Under the pieces are notes generated by a model. The model was given only the letters and a program-made list of their open reading frames with translations. It was not told the origin of the DNA and searched no databases. Positions 2,181-11,697 of a stretch of DNA of 64,000 nt are shown one piece after another. Source of the DNA: Petrimonas sulfuriphila. GTDB lineage: Bacteria > Bacteroidota > Bacteroidia > Bacteroidales > Dysgonomonadaceae. The translations under genes and the position numbers were made by a program. The stretch covers positions 744,001 to 808,000 of the forward strand of contig CP073276.1 of the NCBI GenBank assembly GCA_038561985.1, given 5' to 3'. How positions within the stretch are numbered: position 1 is the stretch's first letter; every line of letters starts with the position of its first letter.

Positions 2181-3380
2181 ATGAAGATATTAGTATTAAA
2201 TTGCGGAAGTTCTTCCATAAAATACAAGCTTTTCGATATGAGAAGCAACGAGGTTATTGCACAAGGCGGTGTGGAAAAGATTGGCATGAAAGGCTCATTC
2301 TTGAAACTCACACTTCCCGATGGGCAGAAAGTTCAGCTCGAAGGAGAAATCCTGGAGCATCGTGCAGGGATTGAATACATTTTCGGTGTCATGTTGAGTG
2401 AGAAATACGGATGCATCCGGTCACTCGATGAAATTGACGCTGTCGGACACCGCGTGGTACACGGCGGGGAACGTTTCAACAAGAGCGTGCTCATCACCGA
2501 AGAGGTCATAGAAATGCTGAAAGAGTGTATTGAGTTGGCGCCCTTACATAATCCCCCTAACCTCAAAGGTATTTACGCCATTCAGGAACTGTTGCCCCAT
2601 ACGCCACAGGTAAGTGTCTTTGATACGGCCTTCCATCAGACCATGCCCGATTATGCCTATGTTTACGGATTGCCCTACTCGCTTTATGAAAAATACGGCA
2701 TTCGCCGATATGGATTTCACGGCACGAGCCATCGGTACGTTTCAAAAAGAGCCTGCGAGTTCCTGAATGTCCCCTACGAATCTCAACGAATCATCACTGC
2801 CCATATTGGTAACGGCGTTTCCATAACAGCTATAAAAAACGGCAAATCAGTGGATACAAGTATGGGGATGACTCCCGTTGAAGGGCTGATGATGGGAACC
2901 CGGTCAGGAGACCTGGATCCGGGGGTTATATCCTATATTATGGAAAAAGAACACATGAGCGCTTCAGGCATTTCCACCCTGTTGAACAAATTTTCGGGTG
3001 TTCTGGGAATCTCAGGAATCTCATCGGATATGCGTGAGATAGAGGTCGGAATAAAAGAAAACAATCCGAGAGCGATTCTGGCACTAAACACTTACGACTA
3101 CCGCATAAAAAAATACATAGGTGCATACAGCGCTGTTTTAGGCGGAGTGGACATCTTGGTATTTACGGGTGGCGTTGGTGAAAACCAGGCAATTACCCGG
3201 AGTGTCGTTTGTAAAAACATGGAGTATATGGGCATTGAACTTGATGAAGAATTAAACAGATCGGTTCGTGCGAAAGAAGTTGTGATCAGCAAACCGTCGT
3301 CAAAAGTGAAAGTACTCATCATCCCCACCGACGAAGAATTGACCATCGCAAAAGACACTATGCAGATATTGGGGAAGTAA
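2181..3380 (+). CDS. ackA: Acetate kinase
   Basis: Converts acetyl phosphate and ADP to acetate and ATP, completing the pathway begun by Pta. At 399 residues it has the usual length. Visible family signatures are the N-terminal VLNCGSSSIKYKLF (phosphate-binding, residues 4-17), GHRVVHGGE near 90, the DTAFHQTMP region near 150, HIGNG near 210 and the FTGGVGEN motif near 330. It follows the dehydrogenase-like gene by 28 nt, and a strong hairpin terminator comes just after the stop, so it is the last gene of the operon. Butyrate kinase is a relative but lacks several of these exact motifs. Confidence 0.96.
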   Translation: MKILVLNCGSSSIKYKLFDMRSNEVIAQGGVEKIGMKGSFLKLTLPDGQKVQLEGEILEHRAGIEYIFGVMLSEKYGCIRSLDEIDAVGHRVVHGGERFNKSVLITEEVIEMLKECIELAPLHNPPNLKGIYAIQELLPHTPQVSVFDTAFHQTMPDYAYVYGLPYSLYEKYGIRRYGFHGTSHRYVSKRACEFLNVPYESQRIITAHIGNGVSITAIKNGKSVDTSMGMTPVEGLMMGTRSGDLDPGVISYIMEKEHMSASGISTLLNKFSGVLGISGISSDMREIEVGIKENNPRAILALNTYDYRIKKYIGAYSAVLGGVDILVFTGGVGENQAITRSVVCKNMEYMGIELDEELNRSVRAKEVVISKPSSKVKVLIIPTDEELTIAKDTMQILGK

Positions 3381-3392
3381 CGTTTAACTATC

Positions 3393-3435
3393 AAAAAACG
3401 TCGCCAGAGGATAACCTCCACCTGGCGGCGTTTTT
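3393..3435 (+). terminator. Rho-independent terminator of pta-ackA operon
   Basis: The arms AAAAAACGTCGCCAG (3393-3407) and CTGGCGGCGTTTTT (3422-3435) form a GC-rich stem with one G-U pair and end in a T run. The loop contains a second small hairpin, GAGG/CCTC. The A run on the other side means it could also stop minus-strand transcripts leaving the AraC gene. Confidence 0.85.
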
Positions 3436-3478
3436 ACATAGGAAATTTTAGAGTAGAGTTTATATTTATACAACCGAT

Positions 3479-3850
3479 TCAGGTTCTTTGAACAAAATTG
3501 CGATAATGTGATGGAGTAACTCCTGTATGCCTTTTGAACGTACGAGAAAAATAGGCCAGATCAATAAAACCGCAGTTCTTGGCAATTTCACCAATATTTT
3601 TATCAAAGTGAACCAGCTGTTTTTTGGCGTGATTGACTTTCAACTGAATGATATAAGCGTTGGTTGAATATCCCGAAGCCGCATTAATTTTTCTATTAAG
3701 CTGAGACACGCTCATGTTTAACTCTTTTGCTATTGAACCGGGAGACAGGCCGGGGTCAGATATTTTTTGGTTGATAATATCGGTAACCTTTTGAAGAAAA
3801 AACATATTCACCCGCATCGGTCTTGTTTCGTTTTTGAGAGCTGTTTTCAT
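3479..3850 (-). CDS. Free-standing AraC-type DNA-binding domain, resembles the C-terminus of the nearby hybrid two-component regulator
   Basis: This 123-residue protein is almost entirely an AraC/XylS helix-turn-helix domain. The first helix pair lies around SPGSIAKELNMSVSQLNRKI (residues 36-55). The second lies around NIGEIAKNCGFIDLAYFSRTF (85-105), followed by GVTPSHYR. It aligns along its whole length with the last 120 residues of the regulator encoded at 8264-11137, including the linker before the HTH (MKTALKNETRPMRVNMFFL against MKAVLEEGSKEPMDANMIFL). It has no sensor or receiver domain, and an in-frame TAA lies seven codons upstream of its ATG, so it is not the tail of a longer frame. 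It is either a relic of a duplicated regulator or a small regulator that shares the operator. A copy of the cluster's direct repeat lies about 280 bp upstream. Confidence 0.85.
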   Translation of the reverse strand: MKTALKNETRPMRVNMFFLQKVTDIINQKISDPGLSPGSIAKELNMSVSQLNRKINAASGYSTNAYIIQLKVNHAKKQLVHFDKNIGEIAKNCGFIDLAYFSRTFKRHTGVTPSHYRNFVQRT

Positions 3851-4125
3851 GTTTTTATCTTTTTTGTTTTACTACATGAATATAGGTATTACAGACAGGT
3901 GCTGATGATCAGTCAGAATGAACAGATCCTTATGGACTTATCTTCCAACCAAATCCGAAGACACCGTTAAGCTATATGAAGAATAATAAAAGGGCTTGAA
4001 AAGTATCCAACAACAGAATATCGCGCATGTTAAACATTATAATTTTTTAAAGAGATACATCGAGGGCCCTTTTATTGGCAATACATCCATTCTCATACAA
4101 AAATAATTCGAGGTAGAAAAAAACG

Positions 4126-4188
4126 TTAGGATTATTTACACAAAATTTAGGACTCAGTGAGCATTAACATTTCGCATATTTGTATTCC
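4126..4188. promoter_or_regulatory. Direct-repeat element, copy A (candidate operator)
   Basis: TTAGGA at 4126 and TTAGGAC at 4147 are spaced exactly 21 bp apart. They are followed by GCATTAAC and then, after nine bases, ATTTGTA. The same arrangement in the same orientation recurs at 8136-8198. The rest of the 530-bp gap between the AraC gene (3850) and the small gene ending at 4381 is AT-rich. It holds one terminator (separate entry) and no open frame of note. Confidence 0.6.
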
Positions 4189-4330
4189 ACACACATTATC
4201 TCTCAAATAACTAACTTATAAACAACTAAATACGATCCAAAAATATGAATAAAGTTTGGATTGGATAAAGATAAATCTGCGAAGGAAGATTATTTCAATG
4301 ACCTCACAAGTCACTGATTTTCAAGCAATT

Positions 4331-4358
4331 AAAAAAGCCCCAATGAATATCGGAGCTC
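4331..4358 (-). terminator. Terminator of the protease/DUF2589 operon
   Basis: On the minus strand AGCTCC and GGGGCT form a stem (with one G-U pair) around a loop of about 15 nt, followed by TTTTTT. It lies just after the stop codon of the 67-residue gene and closes the operon that starts at 8024. Confidence 0.65.
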
Positions 4359-4380
4359 TATGTGCTGAGAAAACACAAAA

Positions 4381-4584
4381 TTATTGAATAAAGAAATCTT
4401 CTTTTTCTTCCTCTATTGTAATAAAAAAATCAAATTTGGCTTCTGAAACTTCTTTTTCAGTTTCAAACTTAACAATCTTTAATCCTGGATAATATTTGCT
4501 TATTTTTATACCCAAGCCGGTTAATCTCGTTTTAACTTCCTTAAAAGACCTACCGTTCTGTATAACTCCAAAGTATGTTTTCAT
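4381..4584 (-). CDS. Small protein resembling a subtilisin propeptide (inhibitor I9-like)
   Basis: This is a 67-residue protein without signal peptide or membrane segment. Its pattern is an N-terminal strand (YFGVIQ), a lysine-rich helix, a central ISKYYPGLKIVKFET and an acidic tail. That is reminiscent of the beta-alpha-beta propeptide/inhibitor I9 fold that chaperones and inhibits subtilisins. It begins only seven nt after the stop codon of the subtilase gene and is last in the operon, so it is probably made together with the protease. A natural reading is a stand-alone chaperone or inhibitor of that protease. The resemblance is weak by eye, so the function is an inference. Confidence 0.5.
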   Translation of the reverse strand: MKTYFGVIQNGRSFKEVKTRLTGLGIKISKYYPGLKIVKFETEKEVSEAKFDFFITIEEEKEDFFIQ

Positions 4585-4591
4585 ATTCTTA

Positions 4592-5851
4592 TCATTGGAT
4601 AACCTGAATCAACCCTTTCCCGATATCCCTATATTTAAGATTTTCAATCGGTTTTGCTTTGCTTTCAAGTAACTCCCAAATTTCCCGGGTGTTCAGATCC
4701 GGGAATTGTTCCATATAAAGCGCCGCCAGTCCGGAAACATGGGGAGTGGCCATACTTGTTCCACTCAACAAGACATAATTTCCTGAATTTCCGCTTTTCT
4801 TCGGATAAGAACTCAGCACATCCACTCCTGGCGCACAAACATTGACATTGCCTCCGGTAGCCGCATTGATCCCGGCGTTAGAGAACCGGGCAATCCGCAT
4901 CTGATTATCAATGGCTGCAACAGCCATGATGGAGAGAGAGTTTGCCGGTGCAGAAACCGGAACGGGCAATGCAGGCCTTTTACTATCATTGCCTGCAGCT
5001 GCAATAATCAGGCAATTGCTATCCAGAGCCCTGATTCCCACAGTCTCAAAAAGGACAGAAGGCTTTTCGTTCAGCTTCACCGGTGAAGCCAGGGACAAGG
5101 AGATTATTCGGAATTTTTTAGTAATAGCCCAGTCAATCGCATCGATAATACTGCTGGTTGTCCCCTTTCCATTGTTGGAAAGTACTTTTCCTATTTTCAG
5201 GTTGCTGTCTTTTGCAATCCCGTACCGCTTGCCGGTATCGTTTCTAACATTCCCGCAAGCAATACCGGCACAATGTGTTCCGTGTCCGTTAGGATCTTTA
5301 TCCCATTCTTCACCTTCGATGAAGGATTTCCCTTCAACAATCCTGTCTACAAAATCGGGATGCGAAACATCGAATCCGGTATCGAGTATGCAAACATCTA
5401 TTCCTTTGCCCGAAAATTGGGTTTCTCCCATTCCAATAGCTTTCAACCCCCACTCCAAGTCCGTTACAGCCGGTTTTGGAATCGGTTTTCTCCGGATGTA
5501 GTTTTCCAGTTCCAGAATTTTGTTCTTCAATTGATCAACATTTGTCTTCAAATCGTCAATAAAGGTAAATTCATCGGCAGGAAAAAACTCCCTTTCCTTT
5601 TCAAAATAGATAACCGGGCTTTTACTGTCGGCTATCGACCGGGTTAGCTGTTCTTCATCTACATCGTCAACCACTACCACTCCCAGGTTTTTGTAAAGAA
5701 CGGCATTGTTATTGTCGATAATGTTAAACGAGCGGTTATCTTTCGATAAATACTCCGATGAGGTAACGCTTACGGAGAACCCTTTCTCCACGTTACGGAT
5801 CGATTTTTCGTTTTGACTGTCCAGCAAAACAATGTACCTGTTTTTTACCAT
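4592..5851 (-). CDS. Subtilisin-like serine protease (family S8) without signal peptide
   Basis: The 419-residue protein carries the complete S8 catalytic set: Asp157 in ILDTGFD, His190 in NGHGTHCAG, oxyanion Asn288 in AAAGND and Ser366 in SGTSMATPHVSG. The first 130 residues are not catalytic. They begin with a strand-like RYIVLLD stretch as in I9 propeptides and contain a predicted coiled coil (LKTNVDQLKNKILELENYI). There is no hydrophobic leader, so the enzyme should be cytoplasmic unless exported by an unusual route. It is the fourth gene of a five-gene operon, ten nt after the gene before it and seven before the small propeptide-like gene. The substrate is unknown, and the co-encoded proteins are the obvious candidates. 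Confidence 0.9.
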   Translation of the reverse strand: MVKNRYIVLLDSQNEKSIRNVEKGFSVSVTSSEYLSKDNRSFNIIDNNNAVLYKNLGVVVVDDVDEEQLTRSIADSKSPVIYFEKEREFFPADEFTFIDDLKTNVDQLKNKILELENYIRRKPIPKPAVTDLEWGLKAIGMGETQFSGKGIDVCILDTGFDVSHPDFVDRIVEGKSFIEGEEWDKDPNGHGTHCAGIACGNVRNDTGKRYGIAKDSNLKIGKVLSNNGKGTTSSIIDAIDWAITKKFRIISLSLASPVKLNEKPSVLFETVGIRALDSNCLIIAAAGNDSKRPALPVPVSAPANSLSIMAVAAIDNQMRIARFSNAGINAATGGNVNVCAPGVDVLSSYPKKSGNSGNYVLLSGTSMATPHVSGLAALYMEQFPDLNTREIWELLESKAKPIENLKYRDIGKGLIQVIQ

Positions 5852-5860
5852 AATTTTATT

Positions 5861-6445
5861 TCATTGAGTAGTGATTTTGCAAACAACTTTTTCGATAAGC
5901 AAGTAAATATCTTCCGGTATTAAATTCGTGAGCAGTTTTTTGTTTATTACGGAAATAGAACCATTTTGAGAAAGCAGATAGCTCCAGTAAACCTCGATCT
6001 TGGGAATAGTATCCAGGTCTTTCAGCTTTTCGTCCGATAAGACTCCTTGTTGACAAAGGTTAAGAATCAAGTTGGAGAGAATTTCTTCACCCTCTTCGAG
6101 TTTTGTGATTTCTTTTTTATAGACCTCCTGCAACAACCTGTCAAGACTCTCGATTCCGTTGTAAGAAAACCCCCACAACAATTCTCCTTTCCCGGAACTT
6201 ATCTTTTCCATTTTGGACGGATCAAAACCTCTTTTTACCGTTAGGAGCATGTTCCTTATCCTGAGAACTTCTGACTCTTTGGAACTTTCGCCTCTGTTTT
6301 CAAAATAATCCGATAATTTTGTCAGGAAAGTGTTAAACCGATGTTCAAAATCAAATGACTTTCCGGTAAATAACTTCTGAACCCGATTAAACTCCACAAA
6401 AAGATCGTCTATAACCCTGACTTTGTTATGGATAAACTCTTTCAT
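5861..6445 (-). CDS. Unrecognised cytoplasmic protein, subtilase operon
   Basis: I do not recognise this 194-residue protein. It is rich in charged and leucine residues, looks mostly alpha-helical, and has no signal peptide, membrane segment or obvious metal-binding motif. Two stretches stand out: a Lys/Glu-rich helix around KKEITKLEEGEEILSN (about residues 110-125) and a hydrophobic region around EVYWSYLLSQNGSISV. Its ATG follows directly after the stop codon of the previous gene with no intervening base, so it is translationally coupled to it. It lies between the 232-residue unknown and the subtilase and is probably a working part of the same system. Confidence 0.75.
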   Translation of the reverse strand: MKEFIHNKVRVIDDLFVEFNRVQKLFTGKSFDFEHRFNTFLTKLSDYFENRGESSKESEVLRIRNMLLTVKRGFDPSKMEKISSGKGELLWGFSYNGIESLDRLLQEVYKKEITKLEEGEEILSNLILNLCQQGVLSDEKLKDLDTIPKIEVYWSYLLSQNGSISVINKKLLTNLIPEDIYLLIEKVVCKITTQ

Positions 6446-7144
6446 CTATTCAAAAATGATTTCTTCGATCGTTTGGCCATTTTTATCCGTAAACGTTTTA
6501 ATCCGTAACCCCTCCTCTTCCATCTCAATGTGAAGATTAATGAACAACTTGTCTTTGTCCTCCGCCCCCGTCGTGTTCGGGTCGATGTAAATGTCGTTCA
6601 ACTTGGTAGATACCAAAGAGTAACTGTTGGTAATAGCTTCTGACAATATTCTTTTCATTTCCAAACCTTCCGCTTCAACGGTGGTATCTTGAGGTCTGAA
6701 AACTCCGATGTTCAACGATTTGATTTGTGAAGAGACATCCAGTTTTTTCACTTCGTCGCCAATATTTCTTACCAGTTTTTGATCTTTTTTCTCGAGCGAT
6801 TTAAAAAGTTGCTTAAACTCCTGATTTTGTATCTGTTCTCTCGTAACTGGAGAAATGTTTAGGTGTTTTTCTTTGTTTACCACCTCAATTCGTTCGTTTA
6901 AATCATTCAGGAATTTCTCGTCATCGAGCTTAAAATTGTATTTCGACTGAGCACTTATATCACTAACCTTCAACGGTATATCCATCTTTATAGCTGGAAA
7001 AGCAAACCTGGGAGCTTTAAAAAATTTCAAGTATTCGTGGTTGGCGTACTCTTTGGCCACCTGAACCGACTTTTCATCTGCTTTTTTACGAGCCTGGATT
7101 ATCTCGCTGTAGAGATAATCCAGGTAGTCTGAAAGTTTAATCAT
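6446..7144 (-). CDS. Unrecognised cytoplasmic protein, subtilase operon
   Basis: The 232-residue protein has no known domain that I can name. The N-terminal 35 residues look helical (YLDYLYSEIIQARKKADEK). A proline-containing stretch follows (FKAPRFAFPAIKMDIPLKVSD), then a charged middle, and a C-terminal strand-rich part (LFINLHIEMEEEGLRIKTFTD). The frame opens further upstream, but I take the ATG at 7142-7144. It lies four nt after the stop of the DUF2589-like gene and begins a plausible helix, while the upstream extension overlaps that gene and looks unnatural. The PAIKMDIPLKV stretch recalls the way DUF2589 proteins list a ligand-like strand, so the two may interact. That is only an impression. 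Confidence 0.7.
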   Translation of the reverse strand: MIKLSDYLDYLYSEIIQARKKADEKSVQVAKEYANHEYLKFFKAPRFAFPAIKMDIPLKVSDISAQSKYNFKLDDEKFLNDLNERIEVVNKEKHLNISPVTREQIQNQEFKQLFKSLEKKDQKLVRNIGDEVKKLDVSSQIKSLNIGVFRPQDTTVEAEGLEMKRILSEAITNSYSLVSTKLNDIYIDPNTTGAEDKDKLFINLHIEMEEEGLRIKTFTDKNGQTIEEIIFE

Positions 7145-7148
7145 GATC

Positions 7149-8024
7149 TTAGTTTGTTGAACCCAATAAACCCAGTACTTTTTCCAGACCGGCCGGCATT
7201 TCATCGTTGGTTGCCCTGACCTTGACGCCTAAAGAATATTCTTTTTCAACCTTAATACCTGTACTTGACGATCTTTTGTAGGAAACATCCACTTTGAATT
7301 TTACCGGCCCCCAACCGCCAGAAGCTCCGGCATTGATACCAAATTCACTGCTTACGTTTTTCGTGTAGGTAGAGTTAAGCTTAACGTTGAAGTCCACCTC
7401 GCACGATTCAATCCGGAAACTCGGTACATTGAGTAAGGCGATAAACGGTACATTTATTTCTGAATCTTGTTGAATTGTCGGAGAGGTAGTACCCGGATTT
7501 GCAGGATCATATTCAGGATTAGGAACATTTTTCTTGTACTTGAACTCCGCCATCCTAAGTTTTTTTGTACCGGATGTGTCTGTCTCAAATCCCACCTCGT
7601 TAATGAAGCTCACGGTGCTTATCGATGCGTTCGATTGCGCTTTTACGCAAGCATCCAACGGTCCACCAATAATTGTTGCGAAATCAATACTCCCTAGCTC
7701 TGCGGCAAAATCTGCACTGGCAGCATCTGAGGTAATAAAAATCTTATCGTCTTCAGCCATTTGTCCGAAGATTAATTTTAACGCATCGGATGAAGCTCTG
7801 GCGACAGAGCTCTCCCATTTCTGGTCGTATCCGGTTTTAAAATTGTCGATAATGTCTATAATTTCTTTTTTTGTAAGTCCCTGTAATTCAGAAGGATCAA
7901 TCCCGCTAATCTGTTCGTATACCGAAGGGGATAGTACATCTTCCAGCCCCGAAAGCATTTCAATCAATTCACTTTTTGTTTTTTTACTGTAGTCTTGTTC
8001 CAAGACCGATTTTAAAGTTTTCAT
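7149..8024 (-). CDS. DUF2589-like protein, first gene of the subtilase operon
   Basis: This is a 291-residue protein without signal peptide. The C-terminal two thirds carry the pattern I associate with DUF2589: GGPLDACVKAQSNASISTVSFI (about residues 120-141), then VPFIALLNVPSFRIESCEVDFNVKLNS (about 192-218), and the ending MPAGLEKVLGLL. The N-terminal 85 residues look helical (TKSELIEMLSGLEDVL, LTKKEIIDIIDNF). The central part is strand-rich and glycine-rich (GINAGASGGWGPVKFKVDVSY). The family has no established function that I know of. It opens the operon, about 110 bp downstream of the direct-repeat element, and its expression is probably set by the hybrid two-component regulator encoded just upstream. 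Confidence 0.7.
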   Translation of the reverse strand: MKTLKSVLEQDYSKKTKSELIEMLSGLEDVLSPSVYEQISGIDPSELQGLTKKEIIDIIDNFKTGYDQKWESSVARASSDALKLIFGQMAEDDKIFITSDAASADFAAELGSIDFATIIGGPLDACVKAQSNASISTVSFINEVGFETDTSGTKKLRMAEFKYKKNVPNPEYDPANPGTTSPTIQQDSEINVPFIALLNVPSFRIESCEVDFNVKLNSTYTKNVSSEFGINAGASGGWGPVKFKVDVSYKRSSSTGIKVEKEYSLGVKVRATNDEMPAGLEKVLGLLGSTN

Positions 8025-8076
8025 CGTGCATTAATTTTAATAATAAAAACAATAGAATTTATTTGCGATAAAGATT

Positions 8077-8198
8077 CAAACCGTATTATTTGCTGACTTA
8101 TCGCGGATAAAATTAATGGAGGATGGGAGAAAAAATTAGGACAATTCGAACAAAAATTTGGACATTTTGAACATTAACTTCTTGTGATTTGTACTACA
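8077..8198 (-). promoter_or_regulatory. Control region of the DUF2589/subtilase operon with direct-repeat element, copy B
   Basis: TTAGGAC (8136) and TTTGGAC (8157) are repeated at 21-bp spacing, each followed by a GAAC(A) about nine bases further on, then CATTAAC and ATTTGTA. This copies the arrangement at 4126-4188. Nearer the gene, the minus strand reads TACGGTTTG (8077-8085), an imperfect -7 box with one extra base and no clear -33 element. That is what one expects of an activator-dependent promoter. The repeat would lie about 60-110 bp upstream of that start point. Confidence 0.55.
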
Positions 8199-8263
8199 TC
8201 GACGTGACAAAAATATTAATAATCTATTTAACAGACAGTTAACCACGTAAGAAAAGTAAAAAG

Positions 8264-11137
8264 TTATTGAGGCAGGTTTCGGTAAGCCGTTGGGGTAACT
8301 CCGGTAATTTTTTTGAATATCCGGGAGAAATAAGCCACATCAAGGAAACCACATGCTTCTGCCACTTCACCAATGTTCTTGTCGCGCTTAATCAGTAACT
8401 TTTTGGAGTAATCAATTTTCACATGTAGAATATAAGCGGAAGAGGAAAATCCCGAGATAGCGTTCACTTTTCGGTTAAGCTGCGAAGGACTAATATTCAA
8501 TGAGTCAGCTATTTGTTGTGGACCCAGATTGGGATTGGATATTTTTTTGAAAATTAAATTAGTAACATTATGAAGAAAAATCATATTGGCATCCATAGGT
8601 TCTTTTGAACCTTCCTCCAATACTGCCTTCATATACTTTACTTTCATGACCTTAATAAATTCCAGCAGGTTTGAAATTCTGATCAAGAGCTCCTCGGGCT
8701 GAAAAGGTTTTCTGATATACACATCTGCACCGCACTTAAGTCCGGTCAGCATATCTTCGGAAGTAGTCTTTGCCGTGATCACAATAACCGGAATATGATT
8801 TAAAATTGTTGAAGATTTCACTTCTTTACATAAGGTCAATCCATCTTTACGAGGCATCATCGCATCAGTTATGATGATATCGGGTATCAGCCTGAGGGCT
8901 TTTTCCATACCGTCTACACCGTCAACGGCTGCAATGACGTTATACTCGTCTTTTAAAAGTGATTGAACATAAAAGAGGACATCCGGGTTGTCTTCTACCA
9001 GTAAAATGGAGGGTTTGCCATCCACGTGAGGCACCTCTTCCTCAAATACTGATTGGCATGCTTTTGATTCATCTTTCCAATCTACAGAAAAATTCGTGTT
9101 ATAAGGTGAATCACTGCCGGGTTCCCATTTCTCGATATTCACTTTCTCGTTTGTTCTTAACGGAAGTGTAACGGTAAACTCCGAGCCTTTGTTAAGCTGG
9201 CTCTTCACCTCTATGGTTCCATTCATATGCTCTACCAGCTGTTTGGTAAAAGCCAGTCCAATCCCACTGCTCTGCTTATCTCCCGAATTAGGCACCTGAT
9301 AAAAAAGATCGAATATTCTTTCGAAATCATCTTCGCTTATACCCACACCATTATCAGTCACTTTTAATTTCACATCCTTCTCATCGGCCGTAATTAAAAC
9401 ACTAACCAATCCGTGATTTGAGGTATATTTAATAGCATTGGAAAGTAAATTCTGAAAAATGTCGGTTATATAGTTAGGCACAAAATCCATCTCAATAAGT
9501 GGACTTTGGGGATAGAAAGAGATAAATATGTTCTTGTCGTTCGCAAATAAACGATACCGGTCAATCAATATCCCTATAAAAGTTACAATGTTACCGTTTT
9601 TCCATACCGGTTTATCCAGTCCGGAACTTATTTTAGTTATATCGAGCAGCTGATTTACCAGACGCAGCATCTGTTCACCTTGTTTCTCGATAGCAGAAAG
9701 GTAATACTTTTCTTCTTCAAGCGGGACTTTTTTGTTTTGCAGCTGCCTGCTGTGTCCAAGGATTATCGTTAATGGCGTCCGGAATTCATGGGTGATATTG
9801 GTGAAGAAATTCGACTTAACCCTATCTATTTCACGCAACGTTTTATTTTTCTTGGTACGTTGTAAAAAAGCGTACCACAATGTCACAGACAAGGATATCA
9901 ATAACAATAACGCTGCAGCAGATGCCGTAAGTATAATTCTGGTCTCACGCACTTGCATCTCCTTTTCCCTGTTCAACTGATCAATAAACTTCAAGTTTTT
10001 TTCGCGTTCATAATTGATGCGTATATCCGTTACCTGATTATTCTTCTGTATGCTAAGGATACTGTCCTGGTACATTACGCTTAACTTATTGTTTTCTAGC
10101 GCATCTCTGTATTTTCCGATCCGACTATAGTACATCTCGTACAAAGCATAGACTTCCGACAAATGTTCGGGAGATCTGATCTCCTCTGCAGTCTCTTTAG
10201 CTTTCTCGAGATACCTGAGTGCTTCATCAAAATTGTCCAACTTAAGATTGATCCTGGAAACGGCCAGGCAAGAGACAAGCCAATGCCACTTATCGTCCAT
10301 TCCGTCCATTACAGCATAAGCTTTCCGATACTCATCTTCTGCTTTTTGATATTCATTTTGATCTTCAAAAATTTCGCCAAAATGCGTATGACAAAGCCCG
10401 ATCCCCAATTTTGATCCAATCAATTGGTTTTTAATCATAGAAAGATCGTAATAATAGAACGCCGAATCATACTGCTTCCTCATTTGGTAAATAGCTCCTA
10501 AATTGGCATAGTTTATAGCCTGACCGAGATTACTTCCGATGGTGACTTCTCCCTTGAGTGCTTCCCTGAATTTATTTTCGGCTTCGTTAAAATCGTTTAT
10601 TGAAAGCGCGATGTTACCAATACCATTCAGGGCCATAACCCTGTTTTTCTGGTTCGCCTTATCGTTGACATCTTGAAAGCTCTCTGTAATCTGAAGGGCC
10701 TGATAGTGGTAGTCAGACGCTTCGGGAAGGACGCCGATCCTTCTCAGGTTGGTTCCAATATTGTTGTAAGCTTGTGCAATATAAATTGTATCCTTCAAGA
10801 GGAGGGCAGCATTTAACGATTGCTGATGATAGTCGATCGCATTGGAAAAGTCGGATTGTGCCCGATACCTGTTACCAAGCTCACAACTAGTGATATAAAT
10901 ACCGGCGTAGTTTTTGGATGCCGTAAAACTGTTCAGCAGGAGTAATACTGAGTCGGCAGGAAAGTTGCGTGAATATACTTTTTTCTCCAGACTGTCTTTA
11001 AATGCAGTGCTCTCAATTGTGGTGTTTCCCGTTCTTGTACACGAAACAACTGTCAAAAATAAAAAAACCACCGCCCTAACAGTTAGCTGAGTTAACTGCT
11101 GGCGGGAAACATGAACGTATTTTACCAATAAATTCAT
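8264..11137 (-). CDS. Hybrid two-component system regulator (TPR sensor, kinase, receiver, AraC domain)
   Basis: One polypeptide carries a whole signalling chain. From ATG 11137 (957 residues) there is a hydrophobic leader ending in a lipobox-like VVSC (Cys33), TPR-like repeats to about residue 360 and a membrane span at about 403-425. Next come a His kinase domain with phospho-acceptor His450 (THEFRTP) and ATPase boxes NAIKYTS, DNGVGIS and GIGLAFT. A receiver with Asp758 (ITDAMMP) and a C-terminal AraC HTH (about 850-957) follow. The TPR part should lie in the periplasm. It ends about 240 bp before the DUF2589/subtilase operon with the direct repeat between them, so it is the likely regulator of that operon. 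I prefer the second ATG because a promoter box at 11185-11192 would place the transcript start at or beyond the first one (11179). Confidence 0.93.
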   Translation of the reverse strand: MNLLVKYVHVSRQQLTQLTVRAVVFLFLTVVSCTRTGNTTIESTAFKDSLEKKVYSRNFPADSVLLLLNSFTASKNYAGIYITSCELGNRYRAQSDFSNAIDYHQQSLNAALLLKDTIYIAQAYNNIGTNLRRIGVLPEASDYHYQALQITESFQDVNDKANQKNRVMALNGIGNIALSINDFNEAENKFREALKGEVTIGSNLGQAINYANLGAIYQMRKQYDSAFYYYDLSMIKNQLIGSKLGIGLCHTHFGEIFEDQNEYQKAEDEYRKAYAVMDGMDDKWHWLVSCLAVSRINLKLDNFDEALRYLEKAKETAEEIRSPEHLSEVYALYEMYYSRIGKYRDALENNKLSVMYQDSILSIQKNNQVTDIRINYEREKNLKFIDQLNREKEMQVRETRIILTASAAALLLLISLSVTLWYAFLQRTKKNKTLREIDRVKSNFFTNITHEFRTPLTIILGHSRQLQNKKVPLEEEKYYLSAIEKQGEQMLRLVNQLLDITKISSGLDKPVWKNGNIVTFIGILIDRYRLFANDKNIFISFYPQSPLIEMDFVPNYITDIFQNLLSNAIKYTSNHGLVSVLITADEKDVKLKVTDNGVGISEDDFERIFDLFYQVPNSGDKQSSGIGLAFTKQLVEHMNGTIEVKSQLNKGSEFTVTLPLRTNEKVNIEKWEPGSDSPYNTNFSVDWKDESKACQSVFEEEVPHVDGKPSILLVEDNPDVLFYVQSLLKDEYNVIAAVDGVDGMEKALRLIPDIIITDAMMPRKDGLTLCKEVKSSTILNHIPVIVITAKTTSEDMLTGLKCGADVYIRKPFQPEELLIRISNLLEFIKVMKVKYMKAVLEEGSKEPMDANMIFLHNVTNLIFKKISNPNLGPQQIADSLNISPSQLNRKVNAISGFSSSAYILHVKIDYSKKLLIKRDKNIGEVAEACGFLDVAYFSRIFKKITGVTPTAYRNLPQ

Positions 11138-11184
11138 TATTTTCCGTGTCTCTTGGCGGTAAACAACAGATATCCGCATCGTTG

Positions 11185-11217
11185 CAAATGTAATAAAAAA
11201 AAGCTGATAAATACAAA
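11185..11217 (-). promoter_or_regulatory. Promoter of the hybrid regulator gene, overlapping the rplI terminator
   Basis: On the minus strand TACATTTG (11185-11192) matches TAnnTTTG. TTTG at 11214-11217 lies 21 nt further upstream, a suitable -33 element. The -33 box falls in the loop of the rplI terminator hairpin. The predicted start near 11178 supports ATG 11137 as the translation start. Confidence 0.6.
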
Positions 11218-11231
11218 TTTTATCAGCTTTT
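11199..11231 (-). terminator. Terminator of rpsF-rpsR-rplI
   Basis: A perfect 13-bp stem is formed by AAAAGCTGATAAA (11199-11211) and TTTATCAGCTTTT (11219-11231) with a 7-nt loop. The T/A runs at both ends would let it work in either direction. It lies just after the rplI stop codon. Confidence 0.88.
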
Positions 11232-11253
11232 AAAAAATATTATTCCTTGTATA

Positions 11254-11697
11254 TTATTCTGCCACTACTTCAAATGGAATTTCCACAGACACTTCTTTGT
11301 GCAACTTGGCGACAGCCACGTAGTTCCCTACTTCTTTTACAGAATCTTTTATAACAATGGTTTTTCTTTCCACATCAAAACCCTTTTCCTTTAAGGCATC
11401 GGCAATCTGAATGTTGGTAACCGACCCAAAGATCGTTCCGGTGGAACTGGTTTTTGCACCGATGGTAAGGGATACTCCTTCCATTTTTTCGGCCAGAGCC
11501 AAGGCGGTTGCTTTAATTTGTTCCAACTTATGAGCTCGTTGTTTCAGGTTTTCAGCCAACACTTTTTTCGATGATTCGGTAGCAATAATAGCTTTTCCCT
11601 GTGGGATAAGATAGTTGCGGGCATATCCTTTCTTTACGTTTACTATATCGTCTTTGTAGCCTAAATTAACTACATCTTCCTTTAAAATTACTTCCAT
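11254..11697 (-). CDS. rplI: 50S ribosomal protein L9
   Basis: The 147-residue primary 23S rRNA-binding protein L9. The N-terminal domain has the hallmark stretches [30 protein letters not shown] (residues 1-30) with the conserved [10 protein letters not shown] long connecting helix follows ([29 protein letters not shown]), then the C-terminal domain with [13 protein letters not shown]. It is the last of the rpsF-rpsR-rplI operon, the standard order in bacteria, and is followed by a strong terminator. Confidence 0.98.

What the first reader, a model, noticed from the sequence alone, without database searches (positions are those of the whole stretch)
3479..11179. HTCS-controlled island with DUF2589-like protein, two unknowns and a leaderless subtilase
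One hybrid regulator faces a tight operon of five genes: a DUF2589-like protein, two unrecognised proteins, a full S8 protease without signal peptide and a propeptide-like small protein. Gaps are 0-10 bp, so the parts should act together. The sequence shows co-directional coupling, one terminator, and a shared 21-bp direct repeat. A sensor with periplasmic TPRs commanding an apparently cytoplasmic protease and partners does not match the usual polysaccharide utilisation loci of HTCS regulators, since no SusC/D or glycosidase is nearby. A stress or defence role is possible. That last step is inference.
Basis: partly seen in the sequence, partly recalled or inferred. Interest (0 to 1): 0.78.

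Follow-up and report, generated by a model that had tools for sequence, protein, structure and literature searches.

The report
Inhibitor-gated protease operon with DUF2589 core
A five-gene bacterial operon, found in the same order in several groups of Bacteroidota, pairs a cytoplasmic protein-cutting enzyme and what looks like its own small inhibitor with three proteins of unknown function; here it sits in a mobile-looking island with its own sensor-regulator, and what it does for the cell is not yet known.

Summary
Window 4381-8024 (-) is a tight five-gene operon: DUF2589 protein, two unknown proteins, subtilase without signal peptide, small protein. A hybrid two-component regulator (HTCS) lies just upstream. 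The gene order recurs in 49 of 54 genome loci fetched with the DUF2589 protein alone. The block from HTCS to a lone AraC gene fills 3386-11249 between ackA and rplI, which are direct neighbours in 3 of 7 relatives examined.

New: (1) The small protein is confidently modelled as a subtilisin-propeptide fold, so most likely a stand-alone inhibitor of the protease. (2) A 21-bp-spaced direct-repeat operator, the published HTCS format, has exactly two exact matches in the 3.83-Mb genome, before the operon and before the AraC gene. (3) DUF2589 and the two unknowns form a three-gene core that also occurs without the protease. (4) A ~100-residue extension on DUF2589 tracks the protease (23 of 23 versus 3 of 26 non-redundant proteins).

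Best reading: an inhibitor-gated cytoplasmic protease acting on, or within, a DUF2589 complex, induced here by a dedicated sensor. Operon, operators and inhibitor fold are well supported; substrate and purpose are inference. Sampled gene context does not favour a defence role.

The parts
3386..11249 (.). whole island: HTCS, five-gene operon, lone AraC gene, inserted between ackA (2181-3380 +) and rplI (11254-11697 -)
   Evidence: ackA and rplI are directly adjacent in G001, G004 and G010; the aligned flanks end at 3385 and 11250 against G004; GC 0.390 against a window median of 0.444 for stretches of the same size, range 0.389-0.488
8264..11179 (-). HTCS P0006: lipoprotein-like N-terminus, TPRs, TM ~415-433, HisKA, HATPase_c, receiver, AraC HTH; likely start 11137
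   Evidence: Pfam, hydropathy; ortholog in 9 of 9 operon-bearing and 0 of 4 operon-less relatives
8136..8180 (-). operator 1: direct repeat with GTCC half-sites 21 bp apart, preceded by GTTAATG
   Evidence: one of the two exact matches in the genome
8108..8115 (-). -7-like promoter box TAATTTTA, 20 bp after operator 1
   Evidence: read from sequence; the Bacteroidetes consensus TAnnTTTG is recalled and this box matches 7 of 8
7149..8024 (-). P0001: ~100-residue helical N-terminal extension followed by a DUF2589 domain (117-288)
   Evidence: PF11655 E 4.7e-28; extension tracks the protease
6446..7144 (-). P0002: unknown, second member of the three-gene core
   Evidence: no consistent Pfam family in 27 members; homologs beside DUF2589 without the protease
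5861..6445 (-). P0003: unknown, third member of the three-gene core
   Evidence: no consistent Pfam family in 27 members; homologs
4592..5851 (-). P0004: S8 subtilase without signal peptide; N-terminal region 1-~90, coiled linker, catalytic domain 148-399; triad D157, H190, S366
   Evidence: PF00082 E 9.4e-51; D, H and oxyanion N in 25 of 25 rows, S in 24 of 25 with one row cut off
4381..4584 (-). P0005: stand-alone subtilisin-propeptide (I9-type) fold, likely inhibitor of P0004
   Evidence: AF2 model pLDDT 88.8, pTM 0.75; top PDB folds are subtilisin propeptides
4334..4359 (-). terminator-like hairpin after P0005
   Evidence: 1 found, shuffles 0.7
4126..4170 (-). operator 2, upstream of the lone AraC gene
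4098..4105 (-). -7-like promoter box TATTTTTG, 20 bp after operator 2
   Evidence: read from sequence; consensus recalled
3479..3850 (-). P0007: lone AraC-type HTH protein, 56% identical to the HTCS C-terminus

Best explanation
The island is a self-contained response module. A membrane HTCS senses an unknown signal through its TPR region (predicted periplasmic) and, through its AraC domain, switches on two promoters that carry the same 21-bp-spaced direct repeat: one for the five-gene operon, one for a lone AraC-type gene. The operon makes a cytoplasmic complex built on DUF2589 (P0001), P0002 and P0003, together with a cytoplasmic subtilase (P0004) and a separately encoded propeptide-like inhibitor (P0005) that keeps it in check. 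Shown by sequence: operon, conservation, island, operators, three-gene core, extension-protease link. Supported by a model: inhibitor fold. Inferred: that P0005 inhibits P0004, that the HTCS binds the operators, that the three core proteins form a complex, that P0001 is the substrate, and any purpose.
For: Gene order in 49 of 54 loci, with median gaps of 15, -1, 11 and 1 bp. Catalytic residues kept. P0005 model pLDDT 88.8, Foldseek ranks 1-3 and 5 are prosubtilisin propeptides (3cnq_P prob 1.00 TM 0.72, 1spb_P, 3whi), with 1scj_B, 2z56_B, furin/PC1/3 prodomain and the inhibitor POIA1 (1v5i_B) also in the top 25. Operator: exactly two exact matches in 3.83 Mb, both in the island; it occurs in 8 of 54 protease-bearing loci over 9 kb, and those 8 are the Petrimonas-type and related loci that carry the HTCS. 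HTCS direct repeats with a mean 21-bp distance are published (PMC3878776, passages). HTCS present in 9 of 9 against 0 of 4. Extension: 53 of 53 distinct protease-linked against 3 of 29 other DUF2589 proteins; at 90% identity 23 of 23 against 3 of 26, Fisher p 5e-11; in the sample fetched by the DUF2589 domain alone 3 of 3 against 0 of 24. Three-gene core without the protease in 9 loci of at least 6.8 kb.
Against: Foldseek E-values for P0005 are weak (best 0.075; none at 0.001 or below), the ferredoxin-like fold is common, and neither Pfam nor a PDB sequence search with its profile names it a propeptide. The profile link of P0005 to the protease's own N-terminus is weak (local probability below 1%; global p 0.0029, probability 4%). 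The HTCS is absent beside the operon outside Dysgonomonadaceae. L063 and L064 carry an extended DUF2589 without the protease. L015 has the operon start and HTCS pieces but no operator match. No structure, interaction, cleavage or expression data exist for the core; the DUF2589 model is poor (pLDDT 62).
Confidence: 0.45

Rival explanations
1. Conflict or defence module: the core senses or sequesters something foreign and releases the protease as a toxic effector, with P0005 as antidote. In other genomes the core is paired with other hydrolases.
For: Patchy distribution and an island with empty sites. The core without protease lies next to a patatin phospholipase in L095 and L102, a CHAP protein in L105 and a peptidoglycan-binding protein in L114. 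A sampled neighbour matches CBASS phospholipase effectors, best E 1.7e-60 (presumably the L095 patatin).
Against: No PADLOC family for P0001-P0003 or P0005, and only generic S8 matches for P0004. Of 90 sampled neighbours, PADLOC matches at 1e-15 are confined to phospholipase and WYL families. No relative was confirmed in three scans of viral contigs. L095 and L102 are from one genus, so they may be one event; other core loci (L100, L104, L106, L108, L113, L063) have no such enzyme alongside. A dedicated HTCS suggests induction by an outside signal.
Confidence: 0.2
2. Envelope- or nutrient-stress proteolysis: the HTCS reports on the periplasm and the operon remodels a cytoplasmic or membrane-associated protein assembly, as regulated proteolysis does.
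For: Membrane sensor with TPRs and a dedicated operator pair; cytoplasmic protease; DUF2589-related genes AF0414-AF0417 of Archaeoglobus are induced on lactate (PMC3949148, one passage).
Against: No substrate or signal is known. The module is dispensable: P0003 family in 9 of 101 genomes of the host family.
Confidence: 0.25
3. Ordinary peptide-utilisation locus: an HTCS, perhaps sensing peptides, drives a protease for nutrition.
For: Petrimonas ferments peptides (PMC7768429, passages); HTCSs usually control uptake of polymers.
Against: The protease has no export signal; no SusC-sized gene in the window; it travels with three non-enzymatic proteins and an inhibitor.
Confidence: 0.1

Closest known systems
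Subtilase with stand-alone propeptide-like inhibitor (SUB1-ProM of malaria parasites, PMC6993865, abstract read; POIA1, PDB 1v5i)
   Same: A small propeptide-fold protein; like SUB1-ProM it is encoded beside the protease gene, and its fold matches subtilisin propeptides
   Different: Bacterial, cytoplasmic, in one operon with three other conserved proteins; no inhibition measured
HTCS regulons of Bacteroides (PMC3878776, passages read)
   Same: Hybrid kinase with AraC domain; direct-repeat operators with two sites, mean distance 21 bp in the paper and 21 bp here
   Different: Published regulons serve polysaccharide use; here no SusC-sized gene, the targets are a protease operon and an AraC gene
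DUF2589 (PF11655) gene arrays, e.g. Archaeoglobus AF0414-AF0417 (PMC3949148, one passage read)
   Same: DUF2589 genes in clusters; three or more DUF2589 proteins in a row in L107, L112 and L064
   Different: Here one DUF2589 with a long N-terminal extension, the P0002/P0003 partners and a protease
Protease plus gasdermin pairs of bacteria (recalled)
   Same: A protease beside a protein it might activate
   Different: No sequence or fold match of P0001 to a gasdermin in the searches made; DUF2589 function unknown
IetAS defence (subtilase IetS with an ATPase, recalled)
   Same: S8 catalytic domain; P0004 matches IetS profiles weakly
   Different: Score far below cut-off (21.7 against 900 bits); no ATPase gene in the operon

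Membership tests
HTCS regulator | periplasmic-type sensor, TM, HisKA, HATPase_c, receiver and AraC HTH in one chain | tested here: met
   domains; hydropathy; periplasmic placement inferred
HTCS regulon | direct-repeat operator, two sites ~21 bp apart, before target genes | tested here: met
   format from PMC3878776; binding itself not tested
Polysaccharide utilisation locus | SusC/SusD pair with glycosidases | tested here: not met
   no SusC-sized ORF in 64 kb besides the HTCS; glycosidases judged only from gene sizes, not by profile
S8 subtilase | Peptidase_S8 domain with D, H, S triad | tested here: met
I9-type propeptide inhibitor | propeptide fold | tested here: met
   model pLDDT 88.8, top PDB matches are subtilisin propeptides, though at weak E-values
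I9-type propeptide inhibitor | sequence match to Pfam Inhibitor_I9 | tested here: not met
   0 families for P0005; no such family among matches of the 23 members
I9-type propeptide inhibitor | inhibits its subtilase | not testable with these tools
   needs an enzyme assay
DUF2589 (PF11655) | score over Pfam cut-off | tested here: met
   98.9 bits against 23
Known anti-phage system (PADLOC-DB 2023) | match to system-specific proteins | tested here: not met
   no match for P0001-P0003, P0005; only S8-type matches for P0004
Bacterial gasdermin with protease | gasdermin fold or sequence in the partner | tested here: inconclusive
   no sequence match; fold search used a poor model

The most novel reading that the evidence does not exclude
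DUF2589, P0002 and P0003 form an undescribed protein platform on which different hydrolases are mounted in different bacteria (subtilase plus inhibitor here; phospholipase or peptidoglycan-acting enzymes elsewhere). In the subtilase version the protease fires the platform by removing the DUF2589 N-terminal extension, a switch comparable in logic to protease-activated pore formers but built from unrelated parts.
Probability: 0.15. Interest if true: 0.85.

Novelty: new variant of a known kind. Interest (0 to 1): 0.62.

Why it matters
DUF2589 occurs in bacteria of several phyla and in archaea, and the only paper found that mentions it does so in one sentence. This operon gives it partners that can be tested: two unknown proteins always beside it, a protease, and a probable inhibitor of that protease. 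The matching presence of the protease and the N-terminal extension names a candidate substrate and region. The operator gives a simple reporter for finding the signal. If the protease does fire or dismantle a DUF2589 complex, this would be a new kind of protease-gated bacterial switch.

Tried and rejected
Function by profile: Pfam, NCBIfam, PADLOC and PHROGs give no family for P0002, P0003 or P0005; scanning all members of their alignments gives only scattered weak names. PDB sequence searches with profiles gave nothing usable for P0002, P0003, P0005, DUF2589 or the protease N-terminus. DUF2589 fold: model pLDDT 62, pTM 0.31; Foldseek best E 1.5, no match taken.

Homology between P0002 and DUF2589: the wider profiles align over 35 columns at E 0.033 but 1.5% probability, the narrower ones not at all; left open. 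The DUF2589 N-terminal extension matches none of P0002, P0003 or P0004.

Phage or plasmid origin: no confirmed relative in viral contigs; P0003 not in plasmids; DUF2589 alone, at 24-31% identity, in 5 plasmids and at 33% in one unverified 4-kb phage record.

RNA: no Rfam family above its gathering score in 3300-11300. A stem at about 3985-4076 looks conserved by eye but folds no better than shuffles (z -1.05, 34 of 200 as good); not claimed.

Selection effects: the 54 loci were fetched with P0001 including its extension, so the extension count is partly selected; the DUF2589-domain sample (3 of 3 against 0 of 24) is free of this but small. Proteins lacking the search motif were dropped before these counts (7 rows). 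The P0003 scan scored at most 8 candidates a genome and found 6 of 395, missing core loci seen, so it is a lower bound.
Full report
What is there. The window lies in a Dysgonomonadaceae chromosome (G000, 3.83 Mb). P0001 is 100% identical to that of Petrimonas sp. IBARAKI, so a Petrimonas close to that strain is likely. Reading from 11249 down to 3386 on the minus strand: an HTCS, a 239-bp gap, five genes with gaps of 4, 0, 9 and 7 bp, a terminator-like hairpin, and a lone AraC-type gene. The HTCS has TPRs, one transmembrane stretch, HisKA, HATPase_c, receiver and AraC HTH domains. P0001 has a DUF2589 domain at 117-288; P0002, P0003 and P0005 match no family above cut-off.

The five genes are one unit. 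A genome scan with P0001 alone returned 54 loci. With family profiles, 49 of the 54 have all five genes in the same order and strand. Of the other five, L014 and L015 are cut by contig ends, L052 has a fragmented protease and no small gene found, L063 has only the three core genes, and L064 has DUF2589 proteins only. The 49 include Petrimonas, Proteiniphilum-like genomes, Chryseobacterium (most of them), Kaistella, Paludibacter, Amniculibacterium, Tenacibaculum, Leeuwenhoekiella and a Saprospiraceae genome (record titles). Median gaps are 15, -1, 11 and 1 bp. Flanking genes differ between groups.

An island in Petrimonas. In G001, G004 and G010 ackA and rplI lie 80-96 bp apart. In the window they are 7.87 kb apart with the module between; against G004 the flank matches end at 3385 and resume at 11250. 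Of the other four genomes examined, G018 has about 8 kb between the two genes (not inspected; one search lists no P0003-family match for it), and G002, G005 and G014 are uninformative. Island GC is 0.390, near the bottom of the range for equal stretches of the window (0.389-0.488, median 0.444). In the host family, P0003 relatives occur in 9 of 101 genomes.

Dedicated regulation. All 9 operon-bearing relatives have the HTCS ortholog at E 1e-100 or better, and none of the 4 same-genus genomes without the operon has one, although those are 78-97% complete. In G008 and G017 it is on another contig, and in G003 two genes lie between. Upstream of P0001 and of the lone AraC gene lies one and the same element: GTTAATG, then two half-sites 21 bp apart, then 20 bp to a -7-like box. 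Without mismatch it occurs twice in the genome, both in the island; up to three mismatches add one site, against five for the reversed control pattern. Among 54 protease-bearing loci over 9 kb (some are the same genome fetched twice) it is present in 8, Petrimonas-type and related loci. Both sites are found in the window, L011, L012/L120 and L062; only site 2 passes the threshold in L013 and L119; only site 1 in L022/L117; none in L015. Published HTCS motifs are direct repeats with a mean distance of 21 bp (PMC3878776, passages). Binding by this HTCS is inferred; P0007, with a 56% identical HTH, might bind too.

The small protein is a propeptide fold. P0005 gives a confident model (pLDDT 88.8, pTM 0.75) with strand-helix-strand-strand-strand order. 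Foldseek against the PDB puts prosubtilisin propeptides at ranks 1, 2, 3 and 5 (best prob 1.00, TM 0.72), with other subtilisin and convertase prodomains and the inhibitor POIA1 within the top 25. E-values are weak (best 0.075; none at 0.001 or below), as is common for short folds, and RRM- and ACT-type folds also appear. Sequence searches do not name it. Because P0005 always lies just behind the protease gene in the 49 loci, I take it as a trans inhibitor or folding helper. The malaria protein SUB1-ProM is a tested precedent for a stand-alone propeptide-like inhibitor encoded beside subtilase genes (PMC6993865, abstract). The protease has its own N-terminal region that may be a prodomain; the profile evidence is weak (global p 0.0029, probability 4%; local below 1%).

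A three-gene core. DUF2589, a P0002 relative and a P0003 relative occur without S8 or P0005 in nine loci of at least 6.8 kb: L063, L095, L100, L102, L104, L105, L108, L113, L115; L113 has another gene order and an extra DUF2589. L106 and L114 have the first two with a third gene of matching size. G456 has both forms (L094 and L095). DUF2589 was found in 28 of 395 sampled genomes of the phylum. So the protease-inhibitor pair looks like an addition to a core that also stands alone; the direction of change was not tested by a tree.

Extension and protease go together. In protease-linked DUF2589 proteins the conserved GGP motif starts near residue 118; in the others mostly at 12-34. Counts: 53 of 53 distinct proteins against 3 of 29; at 90% identity 23 of 23 against 3 of 26. 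The exceptions are L006 (contig ends before the protease), L063 and L064. In the sample fetched by the DUF2589 domain alone the count is 3 of 3 against 0 of 24, with 7 rows dropped for lack of the motif. This is the main reason to propose the extension as the protease's partner or substrate.

Neighbours of the core elsewhere. Next to protease-less core genes I found a patatin phospholipase (L095, L102, same genus), a CHAP protein (L105), a peptidoglycan-binding protein (L114) and a Tc-toxin-B-like gene (L115), but also an integrase (L108), metabolic genes (L104, L106) or nothing recognisable. Ninety neighbours taken from 12 chosen loci (of 102 candidates) are mainly metabolic or unassigned; PADLOC matches at 1e-15 are phospholipase and WYL families only. 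No control set was scanned, so this shows no enrichment and no depletion.

Mechanism and novelty. The best reading is an inhibitor-gated cytoplasmic protease working on or in a DUF2589 complex under a private sensor. No paper describing such an operon came up; the searches were made, in an open-access library that lacks many journals. I rate it a new variant of a known kind (subtilase with stand-alone propeptide inhibitor) because the core's function, which could make it new in kind, is unknown.

Noticed in passing
3985-4076 (-): Between operator 2 and the lone AraC gene a long stem (AATAAAAGGGC / GCCCTTTTATT) seems kept in relatives with changes on both sides in L013 (by eye); the fold is not better than shuffles. 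Possible leader or small RNA.
   Followed up: partly
L119:9542-11849: In G003, whose contig length equals the published P. mucosa type-strain genome, the protease gene is interrupted by a two-gene IS21-type element.
   Followed up: partly
L107:7129-9089, L112:7174-9496, L064: Other Bacteroidota carry three or more DUF2589 proteins in a row, some with a small zinc-ribbon-like protein between them; a similar zinc-ribbon protein follows DUF2589 in L097 and L109.
   Followed up: no
L115:2622-6818: A Tc-toxin-B-like gene lies 230 bp downstream of a three-gene core. Named only.
   Followed up: no
L124, L125 (Vibrio plasmids): Two DUF2589-type frames in tandem on Vibrio plasmids, one annotated and one matched without annotation.
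   Followed up: no
G018:C13:57980-66010: In another genus about 8 kb also separates rplI and ackA; one search lists no P0003-family match for that genome, so the gap may be an insertion hot spot.
   Followed up: no
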